48,663 bases of DNA from Lentisphaerae bacterium GWF2_38_69 (lineage in GTDB: Bacteria; Verrucomicrobiota; Lentisphaeria; Victivallales; GWF2-38-69), in contig MHBE01000064.1 of the NCBI GenBank assembly GCA_001803205.1, positions 1 through 48,663 on the forward strand, given 5' to 3'. Positions 12,942 through 23,507 of this stretch are shown here, in pieces; within the stretch, counting starts at the first letter, position 1; the number at the start of each line of letters is the position of its first letter. Below the pieces are notes generated by a model, which did not search any database, was not told the origin of the DNA, and saw nothing but the letters and a program-made list of their open reading frames with translations. A program made the translations under genes and the position numbers.

Positions 12942-14168
12942 ATGGCTATGCCTGCCGAAAATCTCTTTGATTCGTGCCAGCTGATATGCAATTCTGCTGC
13001 TCTTTGCCCGAAATCAGCTTCTTTTTCAAGTGTTTTTGACCAAAAAGGGCTTCCCGTCTGTATTTGGAACAATATTAAGGATCTTATTGTGATTCTTGAC
13101 AAAGAAGGAAAAATTATCACTTTCAATGAACATTTCGAGAAGATTTCAGGCTATAAAATAGAAGAAGTAAAAGGCAAAGACTGGGTGGATACTTTTATCC
13201 CTAAAGAACAGCAGTCTTATATAAAGCAGGTTTTTGATATTGCTATAAAAGGTCAGAAGACGAAGGGGAAGAATATTAACCCCATCATTGCAAAGTCAGG
13301 GGCGCTTGTCGATATTGAGTGGCAAGACAGTATTCTTTCAAATGAAGCAGGAGAAACAGTTGCTCTATTAGCTTTCGGGAGAGATTTCTCAGAACACAGG
13401 CGAATTGAAGCTGAACTTATAACTGCCAAGGAGGAGGCAGAAAAAGCTTATAGTGCAAAATCCATGTTTATTGCGGCAATATCCCACGAGATAAGGACTC
13501 CGTTGACAGGGATAATAGGATTTGCTGAACTTCTGGAAGATGATTCTTTTGGAAAACTCAATGTTAACCAGAAGATGTTTGTAAGAAAAATACTGGATAG
13601 TTCCGAATATTTGTTGTCTTTGCTTAATGATGCATTGGATATATCAAAATTCGATGCCGGAAAACTTGTACCTGATTTGAAGGCTTTTTCATTGCGCGAT
13701 ATGTTGATCTCTAAAATTTCTTTTTACAGACACAGAGCTGAAAAATATGGAATAAAGATAAGTTCATACATACCTTCAGATATTAAGCTTATATGGGCAG
13801 ATGAAACAATGATGAAGCAGGTTTTTCATAATCTGCTTTCGAATGCCCTTAAATTTACACCTGATAATGGCAAAATTCATATTAGAGCCAAGCGCGTGGA
13901 AGATAAATACATAATTACTGTTTCAGATACGGGTGTAGGTATAGAAAAAGAAGATATTCCGAAGATTTTTGAAAAGTTTTCACAAATTAAAAATGAGGAT
14001 TTCACTCCCAGGACTAAAGGAACAGGGCTGGGATTGGTTATTGTCAAAAAAATGGTTGTTTTGCATAATGGAAGTATAATTGCGGATTCAGAAGGCAAAA
14101 ACAAGGGAACATCGTTTAAAATCACCATACCAATAAGAAGCGATTATGAAAAAAATTCTGATTATTGA
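12942..14168 (+). CDS. PAS-domain sensor histidine kinase
   Basis: A 408-residue soluble sensor kinase with no transmembrane helix. Order: Cys-containing N-terminal extension (C12, C16, C22, C40), PAS domain (about 42-155), HisKA with phospho-acceptor H182 in SHEIRTPLTG, and HATPase_c with N-box NLLSNALKFTP, G1 DTGVGI, and G2 GTGLGL. It starts 3 nt after tkt and overlaps the downstream response regulator by 23 nt, so the pair is translationally coupled. The cysteine pattern before the PAS domain could hold a metal or Fe-S group and make it a redox sensor, but this is inference. The signal is unknown. Confidence 0.92.
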   Translation: MAMPAENLFDSCQLICNSAALCPKSASFSSVFDQKGLPVCIWNNIKDLIVILDKEGKIITFNEHFEKISGYKIEEVKGKDWVDTFIPKEQQSYIKQVFDIAIKGQKTKGKNINPIIAKSGALVDIEWQDSILSNEAGETVALLAFGRDFSEHRRIEAELITAKEEAEKAYSAKSMFIAAISHEIRTPLTGIIGFAELLEDDSFGKLNVNQKMFVRKILDSSEYLLSLLNDALDISKFDAGKLVPDLKAFSLRDMLISKISFYRHRAEKYGIKISSYIPSDIKLIWADETMMKQVFHNLLSNALKFTPDNGKIHIRAKRVEDKYIITVSDTGVGIEKEDIPKIFEKFSQIKNEDFTPRTKGTGLGLVIVKKMVVLHNGSIIADSEGKNKGTSFKITIPIRSDYEKNSDY

Positions 14169-14505
14169 TGACGAACCTATTATCATCTCCCTTCTGACAA
14201 CCCTCCTTGAATCTAAAGGTTTCTCTGTCTTATCGGCTCTAAAAGGTAAAGAAGGCATGGCGATGGCTGAGAATAATATGCCAGGACTGATAATTCTTGA
14301 TTATCACTTGCCGGATTTCAACGGCATGGAAGTTTACTGTATGCTCAAAGGAAATCCAAGAACTCAGAATATACCGGTTTTCCTCTTTACAGCCAATACC
14401 TATGAAGAAGACATAGGGAAACTTAGAAAACTTGGATGCAGAACTTTTGAAAAGCCGATTAAAACAAAAGAATTTATCAAGGAAATCTATAAGATTTTTT
14501 CTTAA
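14146..14505 (+). CDS. Receiver-only response regulator
   Basis: A 119-residue CheY-like single receiver domain. Acidic pocket D8-D9, phospho-acceptor D52 (LIILDYHLPDF), switch T82 (LFTAN) and conserved K103 (EKP) are all present. There is no output domain, so it cannot bind DNA itself; it may act through protein contacts or as a phosphorelay intermediate. It overlaps the kinase gene by 23 nt and is therefore its likely partner. It lies 81 nt before kdpF, but it is not a KdpE, which would have an OmpR-type winged helix. Confidence 0.93.
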   Translation: MKKILIIDDEPIIISLLTTLLESKGFSVLSALKGKEGMAMAENNMPGLIILDYHLPDFNGMEVYCMLKGNPRTQNIPVFLFTANTYEEDIGKLRKLGCRTFEKPIKTKEFIKEIYKIFS

Positions 14506-14586: not shown

Positions 14587-14673
14587 ATGAATGAACTGCT
14601 GATAGGCGGATTTATAATGCTTGGCCTTTTTATATACATATCAATCGCACTTTTTTTCCCTGAAAAATTTTAA
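14587..14673 (+). CDS. kdpF: KdpF, small subunit of the K+-transporting ATPase
   Basis: A 28-residue single-helix peptide beginning MNELLIGGFIMLGLFIYISI and ending PEKF, 12 nt before kdpA. The size, the position in front of kdpA and the one membrane span match KdpF, which stabilises the KdpABC complex. An AGGTAA ribosome site is about 8 nt upstream. It is too short for most gene finders and easily missed. Confidence 0.88.
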   Translation: MNELLIGGFIMLGLFIYISIALFFPEKF

Positions 14674-14685
14674 TTTGACAAGAAG

Positions 14686-16395
14686 ATGACCGAAACAGGA
14701 ATAATAAAAATAGCCATTTTCCTTATAGTTATACTTTTTCTGGTAAAACCATTAGGATTTTATATAAAGCGGGTGCTTTGCGGTGAAACAACTCTCCTGG
14801 ATTTTATTTTTGCGCCGGTAGAGAAATTGATTTATTTTTTGCTGAGAGTCAAACCTGACAAAGAACAGAATTGGAAAGAATACACTGTCAGCATAATTGT
14901 TTTCAGTATTTTTAGCTTGATACTACTTTTTTTTATTCAGCGATTTCAGCAGTTATTGCCAGGCAATCCCCAAAATTTTGGCGAGGTACCAGGGATTCTT
15001 GCATTTAATACTGCTGTAAGTTTTGTGACAAACACTAACTGGCAAGCTTACTCAGGCGAAAGCACTATGAGTTATTTTTCCCAGGTTGCTGGGTTATCAG
15101 TGCAGCAGTTTTTATCTGCAGCAGTGGGAATAGCAGTAGCTGCGGTTTTAATCAGAAGTTTTGCAAGAAAGAATACAGACAATCTTGGAAACTTCTGGGT
15201 TGATATTACCAGGATAACTGTGCGCCTCCTTTTACCCCTTTCATTCATTTTAGCTTTATTCTTCATATGGCAGGGGGTTCCCCAGAATTTTAATAACTAT
15301 GTTACGGCTCAAACCCTCGAAGGGGCAAAACAAATTATTCCTCAGGGCCCAGTTGCATCTTTCGAAGCTATAAAAATATTGGGGACAAATGGCGGAGGTT
15401 TTTTCGGAGCAAATTCAATGCATCCCTATGAAAACCCAACACCTTTTACGAATATTATTCAATGTATCTGCATTTTTCTTATAGCTTCTTCTCTTGTCTA
15501 TGCGTTCGGCCTTATGATAAACAGTAAAAAGCAGGGATGGACTATTCTTATTGCAATGATTATTCTTTTTGTCATGCTTATTGTTCCGATGTATTACTTT
15601 GAAGGAAATATCAATCCACAGGTAAAGAAAATAGATTCTTCCTTATCTGAGGATTTATTGAAAAACATGCAGGGAAAAGAAACTCGTTTCGGAATTGCTG
15701 ATTCAGTGCTTTACAGCGCTTTGACAACTTCTACATCAACAGGCGCGGTAAACTGTAACCTTGATACTCTTAACCCGCTTGCCGGAGGAATAACTATATT
15801 CAATATGTCTCTTGGCGAAGTAATAATAGGAGGAGTCGGATCAGGTTTGTACAATATGCTGATGTTTGTAATATTGACCGTATTTATTGCCGGCCTTATG
15901 GTTGGGAGAACTCCCGAATTCCTAGGGAAGAAAATAGGAATTACAGAAATGAAATTTGTTATGATAGCTCTTCTGATATCCCCATTTTGTGTGCTTTTCT
16001 TTACTGCATTAGGGTGCTTCTTGCCTTCAGTGGTAGCTGATTTGAAAGCATATGGACCACATGGATTTAGCCGTATTTTATATGCTTTTATGTCGGCAGC
16101 AAATAACAATGGCAGCTCCTTCAGCGGTTTAAATGCCAATACTGATTTTATCAATATTTCTACTGCTATTTGCATGCTCCTTGGAAGATTCGTAAGTATT
16201 ATTGCTGTTATGGGAGTAGCAGGCTCGATTGTCAGAAAAAAAATTATTCCACCTACTTCAGGAACTTTTCCGACTACGGGAGCAATATTCGTTGTTATGC
16301 TATTAGTCTGCATCCTTATTATAGGCGGATTGAATTTCTTTCCAGCTTTGGCTCTTGGGCCGATTGTAGAACATGTAATGATGTTTTCTCCATAG
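14686..16395 (+). CDS. kdpA: K+-transporting ATPase subunit A (potassium-binding)
   Basis: The channel-like subunit of the high-affinity K+ pump KdpFABC. At 569 residues it has the usual length and about ten membrane spans. The four selectivity-filter-like loops are visible: TNTNWQAYSGE, NGGGFFGANS, TSTSTGAVN and NNNGSSFSGLN. It follows kdpF by 12 nt and precedes kdpB by 9 nt. Confidence 0.97.
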   Translation: MTETGIIKIAIFLIVILFLVKPLGFYIKRVLCGETTLLDFIFAPVEKLIYFLLRVKPDKEQNWKEYTVSIIVFSIFSLILLFFIQRFQQLLPGNPQNFGEVPGILAFNTAVSFVTNTNWQAYSGESTMSYFSQVAGLSVQQFLSAAVGIAVAAVLIRSFARKNTDNLGNFWVDITRITVRLLLPLSFILALFFIWQGVPQNFNNYVTAQTLEGAKQIIPQGPVASFEAIKILGTNGGGFFGANSMHPYENPTPFTNIIQCICIFLIASSLVYAFGLMINSKKQGWTILIAMIILFVMLIVPMYYFEGNINPQVKKIDSSLSEDLLKNMQGKETRFGIADSVLYSALTTSTSTGAVNCNLDTLNPLAGGITIFNMSLGEVIIGGVGSGLYNMLMFVILTVFIAGLMVGRTPEFLGKKIGITEMKFVMIALLISPFCVLFFTALGCFLPSVVADLKAYGPHGFSRILYAFMSAANNNGSSFSGLNANTDFINISTAICMLLGRFVSIIAVMGVAGSIVRKKIIPPTSGTFPTTGAIFVVMLLVCILIIGGLNFFPALALGPIVEHVMMFSP

Positions 16396-16404
16396 GGTAT
16401 TAAT

Positions 16405-18465
16405 ATGTCAAAACATCCAAAACTAAAACAATCCATTCTGAATAAAGAACTTTTGCTGACTGCAATAAAAGATTCTTTCAAAAAGCTTAGTCCGATAGCA
16501 TTGTTCAAGAGTAACCCTGTGATGTTTGCTGTCGAAACAATATGCTTTTTCAGTACTGGAGTTCTCATTGCGGGATTATTTGTATCTCAGAAAGAAAGTA
16601 CCGGATTTGTTTTACAGATAACCATTTGGCTTTGGTTCACTGTCCTTTTTGCAAATTTCTCTGAAGCCGTTGCGGAAGGAAAGGGGAAAGCTCAGGCAGA
16701 ATCGCTCAAAAAGGCAAAGAGTAATATAAAGGCCAAGCTCCTTAAAGCACAAAATGAAACTAAATATGTAATGGTTGAACCTTCCAAGCTTGGAATCGGT
16801 TCAATTGTACTTGCGGAAACTGGCGATTTTATACCTGCAGATGGCGATGTGATCGAAGGAATGGCTTCAATTGATGAATCTGCTATTACAGGTGAATCTG
16901 AACCTGCTATAAGAGAAAGCGGAGGCGATAGATGCGCCGTTACTGCCGGTACAAGGGTAATTTCTGATTGGGTGAAAATAAAAATAACCTCAGGTCCCGG
17001 CGAAAGTTTTATTGATAAAATGATAAAGTTAGTTGAAGGCGCTCAGCGGAAAAAAACACCTAATGAGCTTGCTCTTAACATTCTTCTTTTTGGCTTTACA
17101 CTTATTTTTATTGTCGTTTGCTGTGCTGTAGAAGGTTTTGCCTATTTTACGGGATTTAATATTCCAGTATTGTTTATAATGGCGCTATTTATTACTCTTA
17201 TCCCTACAACTATAGCAGGTTTGCTTTCAGCTATAGGAATATCGGGAATGGACAGGCTTCTCCAGGCCAATATACTGGCAAAATCAGGCAGGGCTGTCGA
17301 AGCTGCAGGTGACATTGATACACTGCTACTTGATAAGACCGGTACAATTACTATCGGAAATAGGTTTGCCAGCGAATTTGTCCCTGTTAAAGGAGTGGAA
17401 GTCAAAACGCTTGCTGAAGCATCACTTCTTTCTTCTTTAAGTGATGAAACGCCAGAAGGCCGCTCCATTGTCTCGCTTGCTATCGAAAAGCATAACTTAA
17501 AGAAAGAAGCCTATAATATAACCGATGCCGAATTTATTCCATTCTCTGCATATACAAGGATAAGCGGGATAAACTATAAGGATTCGGAAATCCGTAAAGG
17601 CGCTGTAGAATCTATCAAGAGCCTTGCGAAAAATGCAGGTGTCGAAATTCCTTCTGACCTTGACACGATAGTCAAAGAAATCTCTATGAAAGGAGGTACT
17701 CCTTTAGCTGTTTTAAAGAACAACAAACCTCTGGGAGCCATATATCTCAAAGATGTAATTAAGCCTGGCATAAGAGATAGATTTACCGAACTCAGAAAAA
17801 TGGGAATAAAAACTGTCATGATTACAGGGGACAACGAACTTACCGCAGCAGCTATTGCAGCAGAAGCAGGAGTGGATGACTATGTCTCTCAGGCTACCCC
17901 TGAACAGAAACTAGAATATATCAGAAAAGAACAATTTGAAGGAAAAATGGTTGCCATGTGCGGAGACGGCACCAATGACGCACCAGCTCTTGCGCAGTCA
18001 GATGTTGGAGTAGCTATGGCAACTGGCACAACCGCAGCAAGAGAAGCTGGAAATATGGTTGACCTGGACTCAGATCCTACTAAACTTATAGAAGTGGTTA
18101 AAATAGGCAAACAGCTTCTGATAACAAGAGGATCGCTGACAACTTTCAGCATAACGAACGATCTGGCTAAGTACTTTGCTATTATTCCTGCTCTCTTTGC
18201 CGCTTCTTATCCCGGTTTGCAGGCGCTTAATATCATGCATCTTCATTCACCTCAAAGTGCTATTCTTTCGGCAATAATATTCAATGCATTAATTATTGTC
18301 TTTCTTATTCCAATGGCGTTAAAAGGAGTTAAATACAAACCTATCACTGCAGCGGCAGCTCTGAGGAAGAATCTTTTGATCTACGGAGTAGGTGGAATAA
18401 TAGTTCCTTTTGCGGGAGTTAAGCTTATTGACCTTATAATCTGTTTTACGGGGCTGGTAAGTTAA
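16405..18465 (+). CDS. kdpB: K+-transporting ATPase subunit B (P-type ATPase)
   Basis: Catalytic P-type ATPase subunit of KdpFABC, 686 residues. The actuator motif TGES (in ITGESEPA), phosphorylation motif DKTGTIT (Asp near residue 310), and hinge motif [11 protein letters not shown] are intact, as is the KdpB-type motif [15 protein letters not shown] near the C-terminus. Seven membrane segments are expected. Placed between kdpA (9-nt gap) and kdpC (18-nt gap). Confidence 0.97.
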
Positions 18466-18483: not shown

Positions 18484-19053
18484 ATGATAAAAAGCATGCT
18501 AAGATCATTTGTTTTACTGATATTTTTCACTCTACTGCTTGGGATTTTTTATCCTTTGGTTCTCTCTGGAATTGGGAAATTGTTGTTTCCTAAACAGGCA
18601 AATGGATCGTTAGTAGAAAAAAACGGAATAGTGATCGGGTCAAGCCTTATTGCTCAGGATTTTGTTCAGGACATACATTTTCATGGCCGCCCGACTCTTT
18701 CTGATGCTTCCAACGCGCCATTAAGCAAGGCTATGTTTGACAGATTTGCAGAAAGGATCAATACTCTTCAGAATTACAATTTTAAACAAGGAAAAGGCGT
18801 TCCAGTGGAGCTGATAATGGACTCCGGTAGTACTGTCGATCCTGATATTTCTCCGGAAGGCGCTTATTTTCAGATATCAAGAATTTCAAAGGCCACAGGA
18901 ATTTCAGAGGATAAATTACAAAAAATGATAGATTTTTATACAAAAAATAGTTTCATTAATCTTTATGGACAGAAAAGAGTCAATGTCCTGACTTTAAACC
19001 TGGAAATAAATTCTTATTTAAATGCCATTGAACGATTACAACCTAAGAGATGA
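18484..19053 (+). CDS. kdpC: K+-transporting ATPase subunit C
   Basis: Accessory subunit with one N-terminal transmembrane helix (about residues 8-30) and a periplasmic domain; 189 residues. Family motifs are present: GSSLIAQDF, FHGRPTLSDASNAP, and the ISPEGAYFQISRIS segment. The last 32 nt overlap the kdpD start, so pump and sensor are translationally coupled. Confidence 0.95.
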   Translation: MIKSMLRSFVLLIFFTLLLGIFYPLVLSGIGKLLFPKQANGSLVEKNGIVIGSSLIAQDFVQDIHFHGRPTLSDASNAPLSKAMFDRFAERINTLQNYNFKQGKGVPVELIMDSGSTVDPDISPEGAYFQISRISKATGISEDKLQKMIDFYTKNSFINLYGQKRVNVLTLNLEINSYLNAIERLQPKR

Positions 19054-21043
19054 CGAGAGGCCTGATCCTGATAAACTGCTTGAAGCCATAGAGCGGCAGC
19101 ATGCTGTTGCCGAGAAAGGAAAACTAAAAATTTTTCTTGGTGCGGCACCGGGAGTTGGAAAGACCTTTGCCATGCTTGAAGCTGCACATGCCGCTCTGGA
19201 AAATAAAGTTGACCTTATAGTCGGCGTCATCGAAACCCATGGTAGAATAGAAACAGAGAGGCTCATTGACGGCCTTCCTCTGGCTCCTCTAAAGGAAATT
19301 CTTTATAACTCAAAAGTTTTTAAAGAATTAAACTTAGAATGGATTATTGAGAAAAAACCTCAGCTTGTTCTGGTAGATGAGCTTCCCCATAGAAATGCCC
19401 CTGGATCTGCCAATTCCATGCGCTATCAGGATATTATTTATATTCTCGACGCAGGAATAGATGTTTACACAACAGTGAATGTTCAACACCTTGAAAGCCT
19501 GAACGACGAAATTTATCAGATAACTGGTATTAGAGTAAAATCAACTGTTCCAGATTCAATTTTTGAAATAGCCCATGAAACAGTAGTTATAGATATTACT
19601 CCTGAAGAGCTAATTGAGAGGCTTAAGGAAGGCAAGGTTTATATTCCTGAGAGAGCTGATCATGCGCTTAATAATTTCTTCACTTCTACTAACATCTCCG
19701 CACTCAGAGCGAAAGCTATGAGTGTTGCGGCCAAGAGCATTTCCAGAAAGATTATTTCGTATAAACAAACAGCAGGAATCACTGATCCCTGGGCAGTGAT
19801 TGACAATGTAATTGTCTGCATAACCGACAATTCTTTTACCCCTAGCCTTATTAGAGCGGCCAAACGAATATCAACTGCGACTAATGGAAAACTTTTTGCA
19901 GTACATATCGAATCGCCATTTCAGAAAGGATCCAAAGAGAGCAATTTGAGAATATTGAATCACAAAAGATATGCCGAGTATATGGGTGCTGAAGTATCAA
20001 CTATTTCTTCTCCCAATATAGCTAAAGCAATTGTTGAAATTGCTCAGGAAAAAAATATTCGACATATAATCTTAAGTAAATCGATAAGATCCAGATTGGG
20101 CGATTTCATTTTCGGCTCAGTTGTCAATGATGTGATAAGATCCAGTGGTAAAATCAATGTCCATGTTTTGAGCGAAAGACCCCTGGAAGAAAGGACACAT
20201 CCAGCCAAAAGGCTTGTAATGAAATACATTAATCTCAAATCGGCATTTGCTCCTATTCCTCTTTTGAATTCAGCTTTAATGACCCTTGTAGCTATAATAA
20301 TATCAGTAATCTTAAGAGAATTTTACATAGGCGACCATTCTACTGCTATTCTTATTTTCCTTCTGCCATGCATATTTACAGCATATAAATACGGTTTTTA
20401 TCCTTCCACTGTAGCTATTATATTTAATATGCTTGTATATGAGTTTTTCTTCGTAGAACCTGTTTTAAGTTTTTCTGTTCATAAATCCACAGGCTTAATC
20501 TCTATGCTGATATTTCTTTTTGTAAACTTCATAATCTCTAGACTGACTTATATTCTTAAGGAACAGCTTAGAACTATATCAATTAAAGAGAAAGCCAGCA
20601 CGAAATTATTTATTTTTACAAAAATGATTGCTGGAGCCCAGAATCTTGATTCTCTGGTAGCTCTGATAACGGGGGGGATCAAAGATACATGCACTATTGA
20701 TACCGCGCTTTTTATTAATAGAGATGAAACCATAGACTTTGTCGGGAGCTGTCCTGACGGCGTACATTTCGAAGTAAAGGATATGGCAGCTCTGAACTGG
20801 GCATGGAAATACAAGTCTACCAGCGGATCGTGCACAAATACTTTAAATACTTCCGCATGGCTTTTCTACCCAATGAGAACATATGATTATTTCCCTGGTA
20901 TTATGGCAGTTAAACTTGATGGCAAAGCTTCATTTCTTGAGCCTGATAATTATGACCTTTTTCAATCTCTTGTCGATCAATCTGCAGTTGCAGTTTCTAG
21001 AATGCTGCTATTAAAGCAAAAAACTTTATCAAATATGAAATAA
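19022..21043 (+). CDS. kdpD: KdpD-like K+ sensor lacking the histidine kinase domain
   Basis: A 673-residue KdpD, against about 890 in E. coli. Order: KdpD N-terminal domain with Walker A GAAPGVGKT (about residues 39-47) and the VDELPHRNAPGS segment; universal-stress-protein domain (about 250-375); DUF4118 domain with four close membrane helices (about 405-500); and a GAF-like domain (about 520-665). The protein ends exactly where HisKA and HATPase should begin. No kinase fragment is seen in any frame downstream, and no kdpE follows. It starts inside kdpC (32-nt overlap). Short kinase-less KdpD forms are known in some cyanobacteria, but those are usually shorter. It may sense K+ or c-di-AMP (via Usp) and act on the pump or another kinase. 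Confidence 0.9.
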   Translation: MPLNDYNLRDDERPDPDKLLEAIERQHAVAEKGKLKIFLGAAPGVGKTFAMLEAAHAALENKVDLIVGVIETHGRIETERLIDGLPLAPLKEILYNSKVFKELNLEWIIEKKPQLVLVDELPHRNAPGSANSMRYQDIIYILDAGIDVYTTVNVQHLESLNDEIYQITGIRVKSTVPDSIFEIAHETVVIDITPEELIERLKEGKVYIPERADHALNNFFTSTNISALRAKAMSVAAKSISRKIISYKQTAGITDPWAVIDNVIVCITDNSFTPSLIRAAKRISTATNGKLFAVHIESPFQKGSKESNLRILNHKRYAEYMGAEVSTISSPNIAKAIVEIAQEKNIRHIILSKSIRSRLGDFIFGSVVNDVIRSSGKINVHVLSERPLEERTHPAKRLVMKYINLKSAFAPIPLLNSALMTLVAIIISVILREFYIGDHSTAILIFLLPCIFTAYKYGFYPSTVAIIFNMLVYEFFFVEPVLSFSVHKSTGLISMLIFLFVNFIISRLTYILKEQLRTISIKEKASTKLFIFTKMIAGAQNLDSLVALITGGIKDTCTIDTALFINRDETIDFVGSCPDGVHFEVKDMAALNWAWKYKSTSGSCTNTLNTSAWLFYPMRTYDYFPGIMAVKLDGKASFLEPDNYDLFQSLVDQSAVAVSRMLLLKQKTLSNMK

Positions 21044-21123: not shown

Positions 21124-22248
21124 ATGCTGCAAATAAGAGAAATAACTTCTGATAAAGAGTTGGACATTTTTGTAAACTTCCCTTTGGAATTGTACAAAGA
21201 TAATGAATATTTCGTACCCCCCATTCTCTCTGACGAGATCAAGACTTTAAGAAAAGATAAAAACCCTTCTTTTGAATTTTGTGAAGCAAGATATTGGATG
21301 GCGTATAAAGATGGCAAAATCGTAGGACGAATAGCCGGGATACTTAATAGCAAGGCAAATGAAGCATGGAAACAGAATAACTTGCGCTTCGGATGGGTGG
21401 ACTTTATAGACGACATGGAAGTTTCAGGAGCTCTTTTCGGCGAAGTGGAAAAATGGGCTAGAGAAAAAGGGTTAACTCATATTGAAGGGCCTATGGGATT
21501 TTGTGATCTTGATAAGGAAGGTATGCTTGTGGAAGGGTTTGATAAGCTTTCCATGATGCATTCGTATTATAACTATCCTTACTACCCTGAACATGTTGAG
21601 AAATTAGGCTATGTAAAAGATGTCGATTGGATAGAGTTGGAAAAAAAGAACCTCAGCTTCCCTAAAACATTAAAGCGAATAATAAATATTTATGAAAAGA
21701 AATTTCATGGATATGAAGCAATAGATATAAAAAGTTCAAAAGATGTTACAAAATACAAACCTCAGATAGTTGAGCTTTTAAATAGTTCCTATGAACATAT
21801 TCACGGGTATATTCCAATTAATGAGAAGATTTTTGACCATTACTTCAAAGACATGTTTAATCATACCAATCTCGATTATGTGACAGTTATTAAGGATGCT
21901 GACAATACCATAGTAGGATTTGGTTTAGCTATGCCTCTATTGTCAAAAGCTCTTAGAGCCACAAAAGGCCATTTGTTCCCATTTGGATTTGTCAGAGTTC
22001 TGAGAGCATTCAAAAAAAATGATCATGTAACTTTACTTCTGATAGCGGTACGTCCCAATCTGCAATTCAAAGGAATTCCTTTGCTTATTATTGACAAGAT
22101 CAATTCCAATTTTCTGAAGAATGGAGTAAAAACCGTACAAGTCAGCCATATGCTTGAAACCAATATCAATGTACTGCACTTATGGACAAAACACTTCAAT
22201 GCGCAGCAAAACAAAAGAAGACGCGCTTATATTAAAAAAATAGACTAA
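21124..22248 (+). CDS. GNAT-like N-acetyltransferase (YghO-related), copy 1
   Basis: A 374-residue protein resembling the poorly characterised YghO-like branch of GNAT acyltransferases. The N-terminal half has FPLELYKDNEYFVPP, a GRIAGILN strand and the strongly conserved HIEGPMGFCDLDKEGMLVEG; the C-terminal half carries a second GNAT-like region (DNTIVGFGLAMPLLSKAL, QFKGIPLLIID) and a basic KRRRAYIKK tail. There is no clear ribosome site. The next gene encodes a paralogue of identical length. Substrate and acyl donor are unknown. Confidence 0.75.
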   Translation: MLQIREITSDKELDIFVNFPLELYKDNEYFVPPILSDEIKTLRKDKNPSFEFCEARYWMAYKDGKIVGRIAGILNSKANEAWKQNNLRFGWVDFIDDMEVSGALFGEVEKWAREKGLTHIEGPMGFCDLDKEGMLVEGFDKLSMMHSYYNYPYYPEHVEKLGYVKDVDWIELEKKNLSFPKTLKRIINIYEKKFHGYEAIDIKSSKDVTKYKPQIVELLNSSYEHIHGYIPINEKIFDHYFKDMFNHTNLDYVTVIKDADNTIVGFGLAMPLLSKALRATKGHLFPFGFVRVLRAFKKNDHVTLLLIAVRPNLQFKGIPLLIIDKINSNFLKNGVKTVQVSHMLETNINVLHLWTKHFNAQQNKRRRAYIKKID

Positions 22249-22382: not shown

Positions 22383-23507
22383 ATGATAGAAGTTAAAGAA
22401 GTAAAAAATAAGAAAGATATAAAAGCATTTGTTGAATTTCCACTCGAACTCTACGAGGGCAATGAATACTTCGTTCCGCCTATTCTACGGGATGAAATCA
22501 ACACACTTAGAAAAGATAAAAATCCCTGCTTTGAATTTTGCGAAGCTAAATATTGGATGGCCTCAAGAGACGGCAAAACAGTAGGCCGCATAGCCGGAAT
22601 CCTAAATCATGGCGCCAACGAAGCCTGGAACCACAAACGCATGCGCTTCGGATGGGTTGACTTTATTGATGATATTGAAGTTACCAGGGAATTGTTTAAG
22701 CAGGTAGAGAACTGGGCAAGAGAAACTGGCATGACTCATATTGAAGGACCGATGGGATTTTGTGATATAGACAAGGAAGGGATGCTTGTAGAAGGCTTTG
22801 AAGAACTTTCTTTAATGTCTTCTTATTACAACTATCCTTACTATATAAGACATATGGAACAGCTTGGTTATGTCAAAGATGTTGATTGGGTGGAATATAC
22901 AGGAACCAATTTGGATTTTCCCCAAGAAATGAATCGATTGTTCCAGATTAGTAAAAAGAGGCTTCGCGGATACTCCCCTGTGCCAATAGACACTCATAAA
23001 GACATAAATAAATACAAATCAGAAATTGTTACACTGCTAAATCGTGCTTTTAAACCCATACATGGCTATGTTCCTATCAATGAAAGGATATTTGATCATT
23101 ATTTTAAAGAGCTCTTCTATTATACTAATCTGGATTATGTAAGTTTGGTTAAGGATCCGGATGGAAAGATTGTCGGATTCGGATTAGCCATGCCTATTCT
23201 ATCAAAAGCAGTAAAGGCATCAAATGGAAAATTATTCCCTACAGGATATTTTACTATTAAAAAAGCTTTCAAAAAAAATGATTCTATAGTAATGATTCTG
23301 GTAGCTGTTTATCCAGAACTTCAGTCAAAAGGAATTCCTCTTCTTATTATAGATAATGTTAATTCCAAACTCCTGAAAAATGGAATAACACATGTGGAAA
23401 CCAGCCATATGCTGGAGGACAATGAGGCTGTATTAGAACTCTGGAGACACTTCAAAACTAGAAAACAGCACAAAAGAAGACGCAGTTTCATAAAACCGGT
23501 ATTTTAA
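22383..23507 (+). CDS. GNAT-like N-acetyltransferase (YghO-related), copy 2
   Basis: Paralogue of the gene at 21124, also 374 residues and colinear along its whole length. Shared blocks include FPLELYEGNEYFVPPI, FGWVDFIDDIEV, HIEGPMGFCD, HYFKELFYYTNLDYV and a C-terminal KRRRSFIKP. The centre (TNLDFPQEMNRLFQISKKRL) differs most from copy 1. This indicates a tandem duplication followed by divergence, with both copies intact. It ends 15 nt before the convergent metW stop. Function unknown. Confidence 0.75.
   Translation: MIEVKEVKNKKDIKAFVEFPLELYEGNEYFVPPILRDEINTLRKDKNPCFEFCEAKYWMASRDGKTVGRIAGILNHGANEAWNHKRMRFGWVDFIDDIEVTRELFKQVENWARETGMTHIEGPMGFCDIDKEGMLVEGFEELSLMSSYYNYPYYIRHMEQLGYVKDVDWVEYTGTNLDFPQEMNRLFQISKKRLRGYSPVPIDTHKDINKYKSEIVTLLNRAFKPIHGYVPINERIFDHYFKELFYYTNLDYVSLVKDPDGKIVGFGLAMPILSKAVKASNGKLFPTGYFTIKKAFKKNDSIVMILVAVYPELQSKGIPLLIIDNVNSKLLKNGITHVETSHMLEDNEAVLELWRHFKTRKQHKRRRSFIKPVF

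What the first reader, a model, noticed from the sequence alone, without database searches (positions are those of the whole stretch)
19022..21043. KdpD without its kinase domain, and no KdpE
The protein retains the KdpD N-terminal ATPase-like domain, Usp, the four-helix DUF4118 segment and a GAF-like domain, then stops just where HisKA would start. The stop is clean, with no kinase fragment after it. The pump therefore lacks its standard two-component regulator locally. Kinase-less KdpD forms are known from some bacteria, but retaining membrane and GAF parts is less usual. It might act directly on the pump or through another kinase.
Basis: partly seen in the sequence, partly recalled or inferred. 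Interest (0 to 1): 0.6.

Follow-up and report, generated by a model that had tools for sequence, protein, structure and literature searches.

The report
Potassium-pump regulator without histidine kinase
This gene encodes a shortened form of the potassium-pump regulator KdpD that has lost its histidine-kinase half but kept the serine-kinase half that, in E. coli, switches the pump off directly; it is a clean new example of a class of shortened KdpD described in 2024.

Summary
At 19022-21043, directly after kdpFABC, lies an intact 673-codon kdpD with the KdpD ATPase-like domain, a Usp domain, four membrane helices and a GAF domain. It ends 16 residues before the position of E. coli His673, and no kinase remnant follows. 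The genome (95% complete) has no other KdpD, no other DUF4118 protein, and one OmpR-type response regulator, which is PhoB-like. So KdpE appears to be missing genome-wide.

The best explanation is largely published. Silberberg et al. 2024 (PMC11018627) showed that the KdpD N-terminal domain is an atypical serine kinase that phosphorylates KdpB Ser162 and inhibits the pump. They also described natural KdpDs lacking DHp-CA, mostly in species without KdpE. The window protein closely resembles their E. coli deletion KdpD(delta 663-894), which still inhibited the pump. [quoted passage not shown]

The input is unsettled: the genome has a CdaA-type diadenylate cyclase, but the Usp domain lacks the Firmicutes c-di-AMP motif. 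I rate this a new member of a known kind. Related genomes hold KdpD-Usp-EIIA fusions and NtrC-type two-component genes beside kdp, which may deserve their own look.

The parts
19022..21043 (+). kdpD without histidine-kinase half, 673 aa plus stop
   Evidence: ORF, Pfam, alignment, model
19115..19738 (+). KdpD domain (residues 32-239), the atypical serine kinase module; Walker A G40-T48, F49 (E. coli W39), Walker B D119/E120, R200 (E. coli R190)
   Evidence: fold 2r8r
19805..20146 (+). Usp domain (residues 262-375)
   Evidence: fold 7ji4; Firmicutes c-di-AMP motif absent
20270..20575 (+). DUF4118 four-helix membrane segment (residues 417-518)
20594..21016 (+). GAF domain (about residues 525-665)
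   Evidence: profile to 4qpr, fold 4y2f/4qpr
16405..18465 (+). kdpB, P-type ATPase subunit; TGES Ser165 (codon 16897-16899) is the predicted phosphorylation target
14686..16395 (+). kdpA
18484..19053 (+). kdpC, overlaps the start of kdpD by 32 bp
14587..14673 (+). kdpF, 28 aa
12942..14168 (+). PAS-HisKA-HATPase histidine kinase upstream of kdpF; possible separate regulator of kdp (unproven)
14146..14505 (+). receiver-only response regulator, no DNA-binding domain, partner of the kinase above by position (overlapping genes)

Best explanation
The gene encodes a KdpD that has lost its histidine-kinase half and works only as a post-translational off-switch for the pump. Its N-terminal Walker-type module phosphorylates KdpB Ser165 (E. 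coli Ser162, TGES loop) from ATP when potassium is sufficient, which inhibits the pump. The retained membrane and GAF domains report potassium, and the Usp domain may add a second signal, perhaps c-di-AMP. With DHp-CA and KdpE both absent it cannot control kdp transcription in the classical way. Shown here: gene anatomy, absence of kinase and KdpE, conservation of catalytic residues and of the target. Inferred from E. coli and Deinococcus experiments: the phosphorylation, its effect and its inputs.
For: Intact ORF ending opposite E. coli A657. Walker A, Walker B D119/E120 and R200 conserved; F in place of W39, as in other KdpDs. KdpB keeps TGES and the whole kdpFABC operon is intact. No KdpE and no second KdpD or split TM/GAF kinase in the genome. 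E. coli KdpD lacking residues 663-894 still mediates KdpB phosphorylation and pump inhibition, the isolated N-terminal domain phosphorylates KdpB, and kinase-less forms go with loss of KdpE (PMC11018627). Clean DHp-CA losses in unrelated lineages. Divergence is not concentrated in TM/GAF.
Against: No biochemical data for this protein. It is highly diverged (terminal branch 1.46 against a median of 0.24). The adenine-stacking W39 is F. The potassium-sensing residues were not tested. No close relative exists to show that the truncated form is stably inherited.
Confidence: 0.77

Rival explanations
1. Histidine-kinase control was moved rather than lost: the PAS histidine kinase and receiver directly upstream of kdpF (12942-14505) control kdp in place of KdpD-KdpE, while KdpD acts on the pump only. 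This can be true together with the best explanation.
For: The pair lies on the same strand, its receiver ends 81 bp before kdpF, and it does not follow transketolase in ten related genomes, so it is particular to this locus. In relatives with short KdpD a HAMP-type kinase and an NtrC-type regulator stand upstream of kdpABC-kdpD (L148, L149; L150 with a truncated, displaced regulator) or of kdpD alone (L151, L152).
Against: The receiver here has no DNA-binding domain. The kinase starts 2 bp after the transketolase gene, so it may belong to that transcript. Its nearest homologue in the same family lies away from kdp.
Confidence: 0.2
2. The gene is a recent truncation or an assembly or base-calling error of a full-length kdpD.
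For: Such cases exist: Anaerolinea L120 has its kinase in a shifted frame followed by KdpE. No close relative is available for comparison.
Against: No kinase fragment in any frame after the stop, another gene 80 bp later, no KdpE in the genome, and an otherwise intact ORF with all catalytic residues. A frameshift or single stop would leave a readable kinase downstream.
Confidence: 0.07
3. KdpD without its kinase signals through another histidine kinase, for example by forming a complex with it.
For: The genome holds about 30 HATPase domains, one of them next door.
Against: The serine-kinase residues and the KdpB target are intact, and direct phosphorylation by the isolated N-terminal domain is established in E. 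coli (PMC11018627). No partner-specific feature was found.
Confidence: 0.04

Closest known systems
KdpD forms lacking DHp-CA (serine-kinase-only KdpD with TM and GAF), Silberberg et al. 2024, PMC11018627
   Same: KdpD, Usp, TM and GAF domains kept, DHp-CA lost, KdpE absent, Walker motifs and KdpB target conserved
   Different: New lineage, very diverged sequence, with a diadenylate cyclase in the genome; activity not tested
E. coli KdpD
   Same: Same domains up to the GAF domain; 30% identity
   Different: E. coli has DHp-CA with His673 and a KdpE partner; this protein has neither
Short KdpD/Usp forms (Deinococcus, Synechocystis; NCBIfam NF038185 KdpD_non_kinase)
   Same: No histidine kinase; [quoted passage not shown] gene placed after kdpC
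   Different: They lack the membrane and GAF domains; this protein scores 358.7 against the NF038185 cut-off of 550

Membership tests
DHp-CA-lacking, serine-kinase-only KdpD (PMC11018627) | KdpD domain with Walker A and Walker B | tested here: met
   G40, G46-K47-T48, D119, E120
DHp-CA-lacking, serine-kinase-only KdpD (PMC11018627) | Adenine-contact pair W39/R190 | tested here: inconclusive
   R200 conserved; W39 is F49, also F in Azospirillum and Sphingomonas KdpD and Y in many others
DHp-CA-lacking, serine-kinase-only KdpD (PMC11018627) | TM and GAF domains retained | tested here: met
DHp-CA-lacking, serine-kinase-only KdpD (PMC11018627) | No DHp-CA and no catalytic histidine | tested here: met
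DHp-CA-lacking, serine-kinase-only KdpD (PMC11018627) | KdpE absent from the species (typical, not strict) | tested here: met
   genome 95% complete
DHp-CA-lacking, serine-kinase-only KdpD (PMC11018627) | KdpB target serine in TGES | tested here: met
DHp-CA-lacking, serine-kinase-only KdpD (PMC11018627) | Serine kinase activity on KdpB | not testable with these tools
   Needs biochemistry
KdpD sensor histidine kinase (full length) | DHp domain with phospho-accepting His and CA domain | tested here: not met
   NF007793 match covers model positions 4-656 of 895 and is below cut-off
NF038185 KdpD_non_kinase (short KdpD/Usp) | Score over the curated cut-off | tested here: not met
   358.7 against 550 bits
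c-di-AMP-binding KdpD Usp domain (PMC8214093) | Motif (A/G/C)XSXSX2N(Y/F) | tested here: not met
   No match in the window protein; the motif is from Firmicutes and the short D. radiodurans KdpD appears to lack it too
c-di-AMP-binding KdpD Usp domain (PMC8214093) | Diadenylate cyclase in the genome (context) | tested here: met
   One CdaA-type cyclase on contig C5

The most novel reading that the evidence does not exclude
The histidine-kinase function was handed to an unrelated two-component pair placed upstream of kdpFABC. The locus would then carry two separate control layers: the upstream pair for expression and a membrane-bound serine-kinase KdpD for pump shut-off. In this species the first layer would act through a receiver without a DNA-binding domain.
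Probability: 0.18. Interest if true: 0.45.

Novelty: new member of a known kind. Interest (0 to 1): 0.3.

Why it matters
It is a natural counterpart of a laboratory deletion of E. coli KdpD, and it fits the view that pump shut-off can be the sole job of a KdpD. Because it keeps the potassium-sensing domains and a Usp domain, and its genome has a diadenylate cyclase, it offers a way to ask which input drives the serine kinase without interference from a histidine kinase, a question the 2024 paper leaves open.

Tried and rejected
The first genome-contig scan and the viral scan with the single protein found no relatives; the alignment-based scan gave 79 loci. Rfam found nothing in the window at gathering scores, so no c-di-AMP riboswitch was detected upstream of kdp. 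The promoter scan was at chance level and the terminator scan below it. The tree does not place the window KdpD reliably: local support 0.015, long branch, outside the KdpDs of its own phylum. Base composition gives no sign of recent transfer: G+C 38% in kdpD, 39% in kdpFABC and in the window. The organism could not be named from the collections. I considered that the upstream kinase-receiver pair belongs to a conserved transketolase operon; ten relatives do not show it. L015 looked like another short form, but its match is only partial and the frame seems to be disrupted, so I did not count it.

Full report
What is there. ORF 19022-21043 (+) follows kdpF (14587-14673), kdpA, kdpB and kdpC on the same strand and overlaps kdpC by 32 bp. 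Its 673-aa product has the KdpD domain (32-239), Usp (262-375) and DUF4118 (417-518) by Pfam. Pfam does not call the GAF domain, but the family profile matches the solved E. coli KdpD GAF domain. An AlphaFold model built on 35 sequences (mean pLDDT 82.7) matches 2r8r (KdpD N-terminal domain, target TM 0.92), 7ji4 (Usp with c-di-AMP, 0.86) and 4y2f/4qpr (GAF, 0.85). The protein ends opposite E. coli A657, 16 residues before the phospho-accepting His673. No kinase remnant is visible in any frame up to 21500, and the next gene starts at 21124.

Genome-wide absence. The genome (3.12 Mb, 66 contigs, 95% complete) has one KdpD domain, one DUF4118, hence no split TM/GAF/DHp-CA kinase, and one OmpR-type DNA-binding domain. 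That regulator scores best as PhoB (235.7 bits, under its cut-off of 296) and sits beside a PnpS/PhoR-like kinase. KdpE is therefore missing as far as the assembly shows.

Is the truncation real? In 388 genomes of the phylum, by my count from the table, 49 matches that span nearly the whole protein lie in open frames of 883 aa or more, about ten are short KdpD/Usp forms of 377-574 aa, and this is the only 673-aa form. Among the 79 nearest named KdpD loci, two more lack a working DHp-CA: a Methanomassiliicoccaceae MAG (L080) that ends right after GAF, and a planctomycete MAG (L112) that ends inside a DHp region with Tyr at the His position. A third, Anaerolinea L120, is a gene split by a frame change, with its kinase in the next ORF and KdpE after it. 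L080 and L112 fall in different parts of the tree, so the loss has probably happened more than once, though support near L112 and near the window is poor. The window protein is strongly diverged (terminal branch 1.46, median 0.24). The divergence is spread over all domains (z from -4.0 in the catalytic domain to -2.3 in GAF), so the sensor half is not decaying faster than the rest.

How it works. Silberberg et al. 2024 (PMC11018627; [quoted passage not shown] coli is an atypical serine kinase that phosphorylates KdpB Ser162 at high K+ and inhibits the pump. The Walker A motif, Walker B D109/E110 and the W39/R190 pair are required, and deleting residues 663-894 leaves inhibition and phosphorylation intact. 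They found natural KdpDs lacking DHp-CA, mostly in species without KdpE, and proposed that their sole role is pump shut-off. The window protein has these catalytic residues except W39, which is F as in several other KdpDs, and its KdpB has the TGES target (Ser165). The most likely mechanism is direct serine phosphorylation of KdpB, with the membrane and GAF parts as potassium input. For this protein that is inferred, not shown.

Input. The genome encodes a CdaA-type diadenylate cyclase, but the Firmicutes c-di-AMP motif (PMC8214093) is not met in this Usp domain. The short D. radiodurans KdpD appears to lack it too, while the D. geothermalis KdpD responds to c-di-AMP (PMC11018627), so the test is not decisive.

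Transcription. Directly upstream of kdpF lie a PAS histidine kinase and a receiver-only regulator (12942-14505). The pair does not follow transketolase in ten related genomes, so it is particular to this locus. In L148 and L149 an NtrC-type regulator and a HAMP-type kinase stand directly upstream of kdpABC and a kinase-less KdpD; L150 is similar but with a truncated regulator further away; in L151 and L152 the pair stands directly before KdpD and no kdpABC was found in the stretch read. Separate two-component pairs thus recur beside kinase-less KdpD in this group, but the receiver here has no DNA-binding domain, so I keep this as a rival or additional layer.

Verdict. The explanation has been largely known since 2024. 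Interest is moderate to low, with a useful experimental handle. The KdpD-Usp-EIIA fusions seen in relatives may deserve more attention than the finding itself.

Noticed in passing
L148:229-1950 (-) (G138), L013 (G139), L149:13269-14966 (+) (G264): Kinase-less KdpD-Usp proteins (566-574 aa) fused at the C-terminus to a PTS EIIA domain (PF00359, E=1e-18 and 1e-14). EIIA(Ntr) is known to regulate KdpD in proteobacteria, so the fusion points to direct PTS control of the serine kinase. I found no paper on such a fusion in one search.
   Followed up: partly
L143:9261-9722 (+) (G033), L144:4853-5317 (-) (G027): A stand-alone EIIA gene of about 155 aa lies directly after kdpE in kdpABCDE operons of the same order; G036 seems to have the same arrangement by coordinates.
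   Followed up: partly
L148, L149, L150, L151, L152: NtrC-type sigma-54 regulator and HAMP-type histidine kinase beside kinase-less KdpD, upstream of kdpABC in L148-L150.
   Followed up: partly
L147:3451-7713 (+), contig C5 of the window genome: Gene row CdaA diadenylate cyclase, YbbR-like protein, Usp protein, PhoB-like regulator, PnpS/PhoR-like kinase: the only OmpR-type regulator of the genome sits next to its c-di-AMP synthase.
   Followed up: partly
window 21124-22248 and 22383-23507: Two tandem, similar 374-aa proteins with weak GNAT acetyltransferase matches directly after kdpD.
   Followed up: no
L112:5998-8166 (+): Planctomycete KdpD ending in a degenerate DHp with Tyr in place of the phospho-accepting His, apparently an intermediate stage of kinase loss.
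   Followed up: partly
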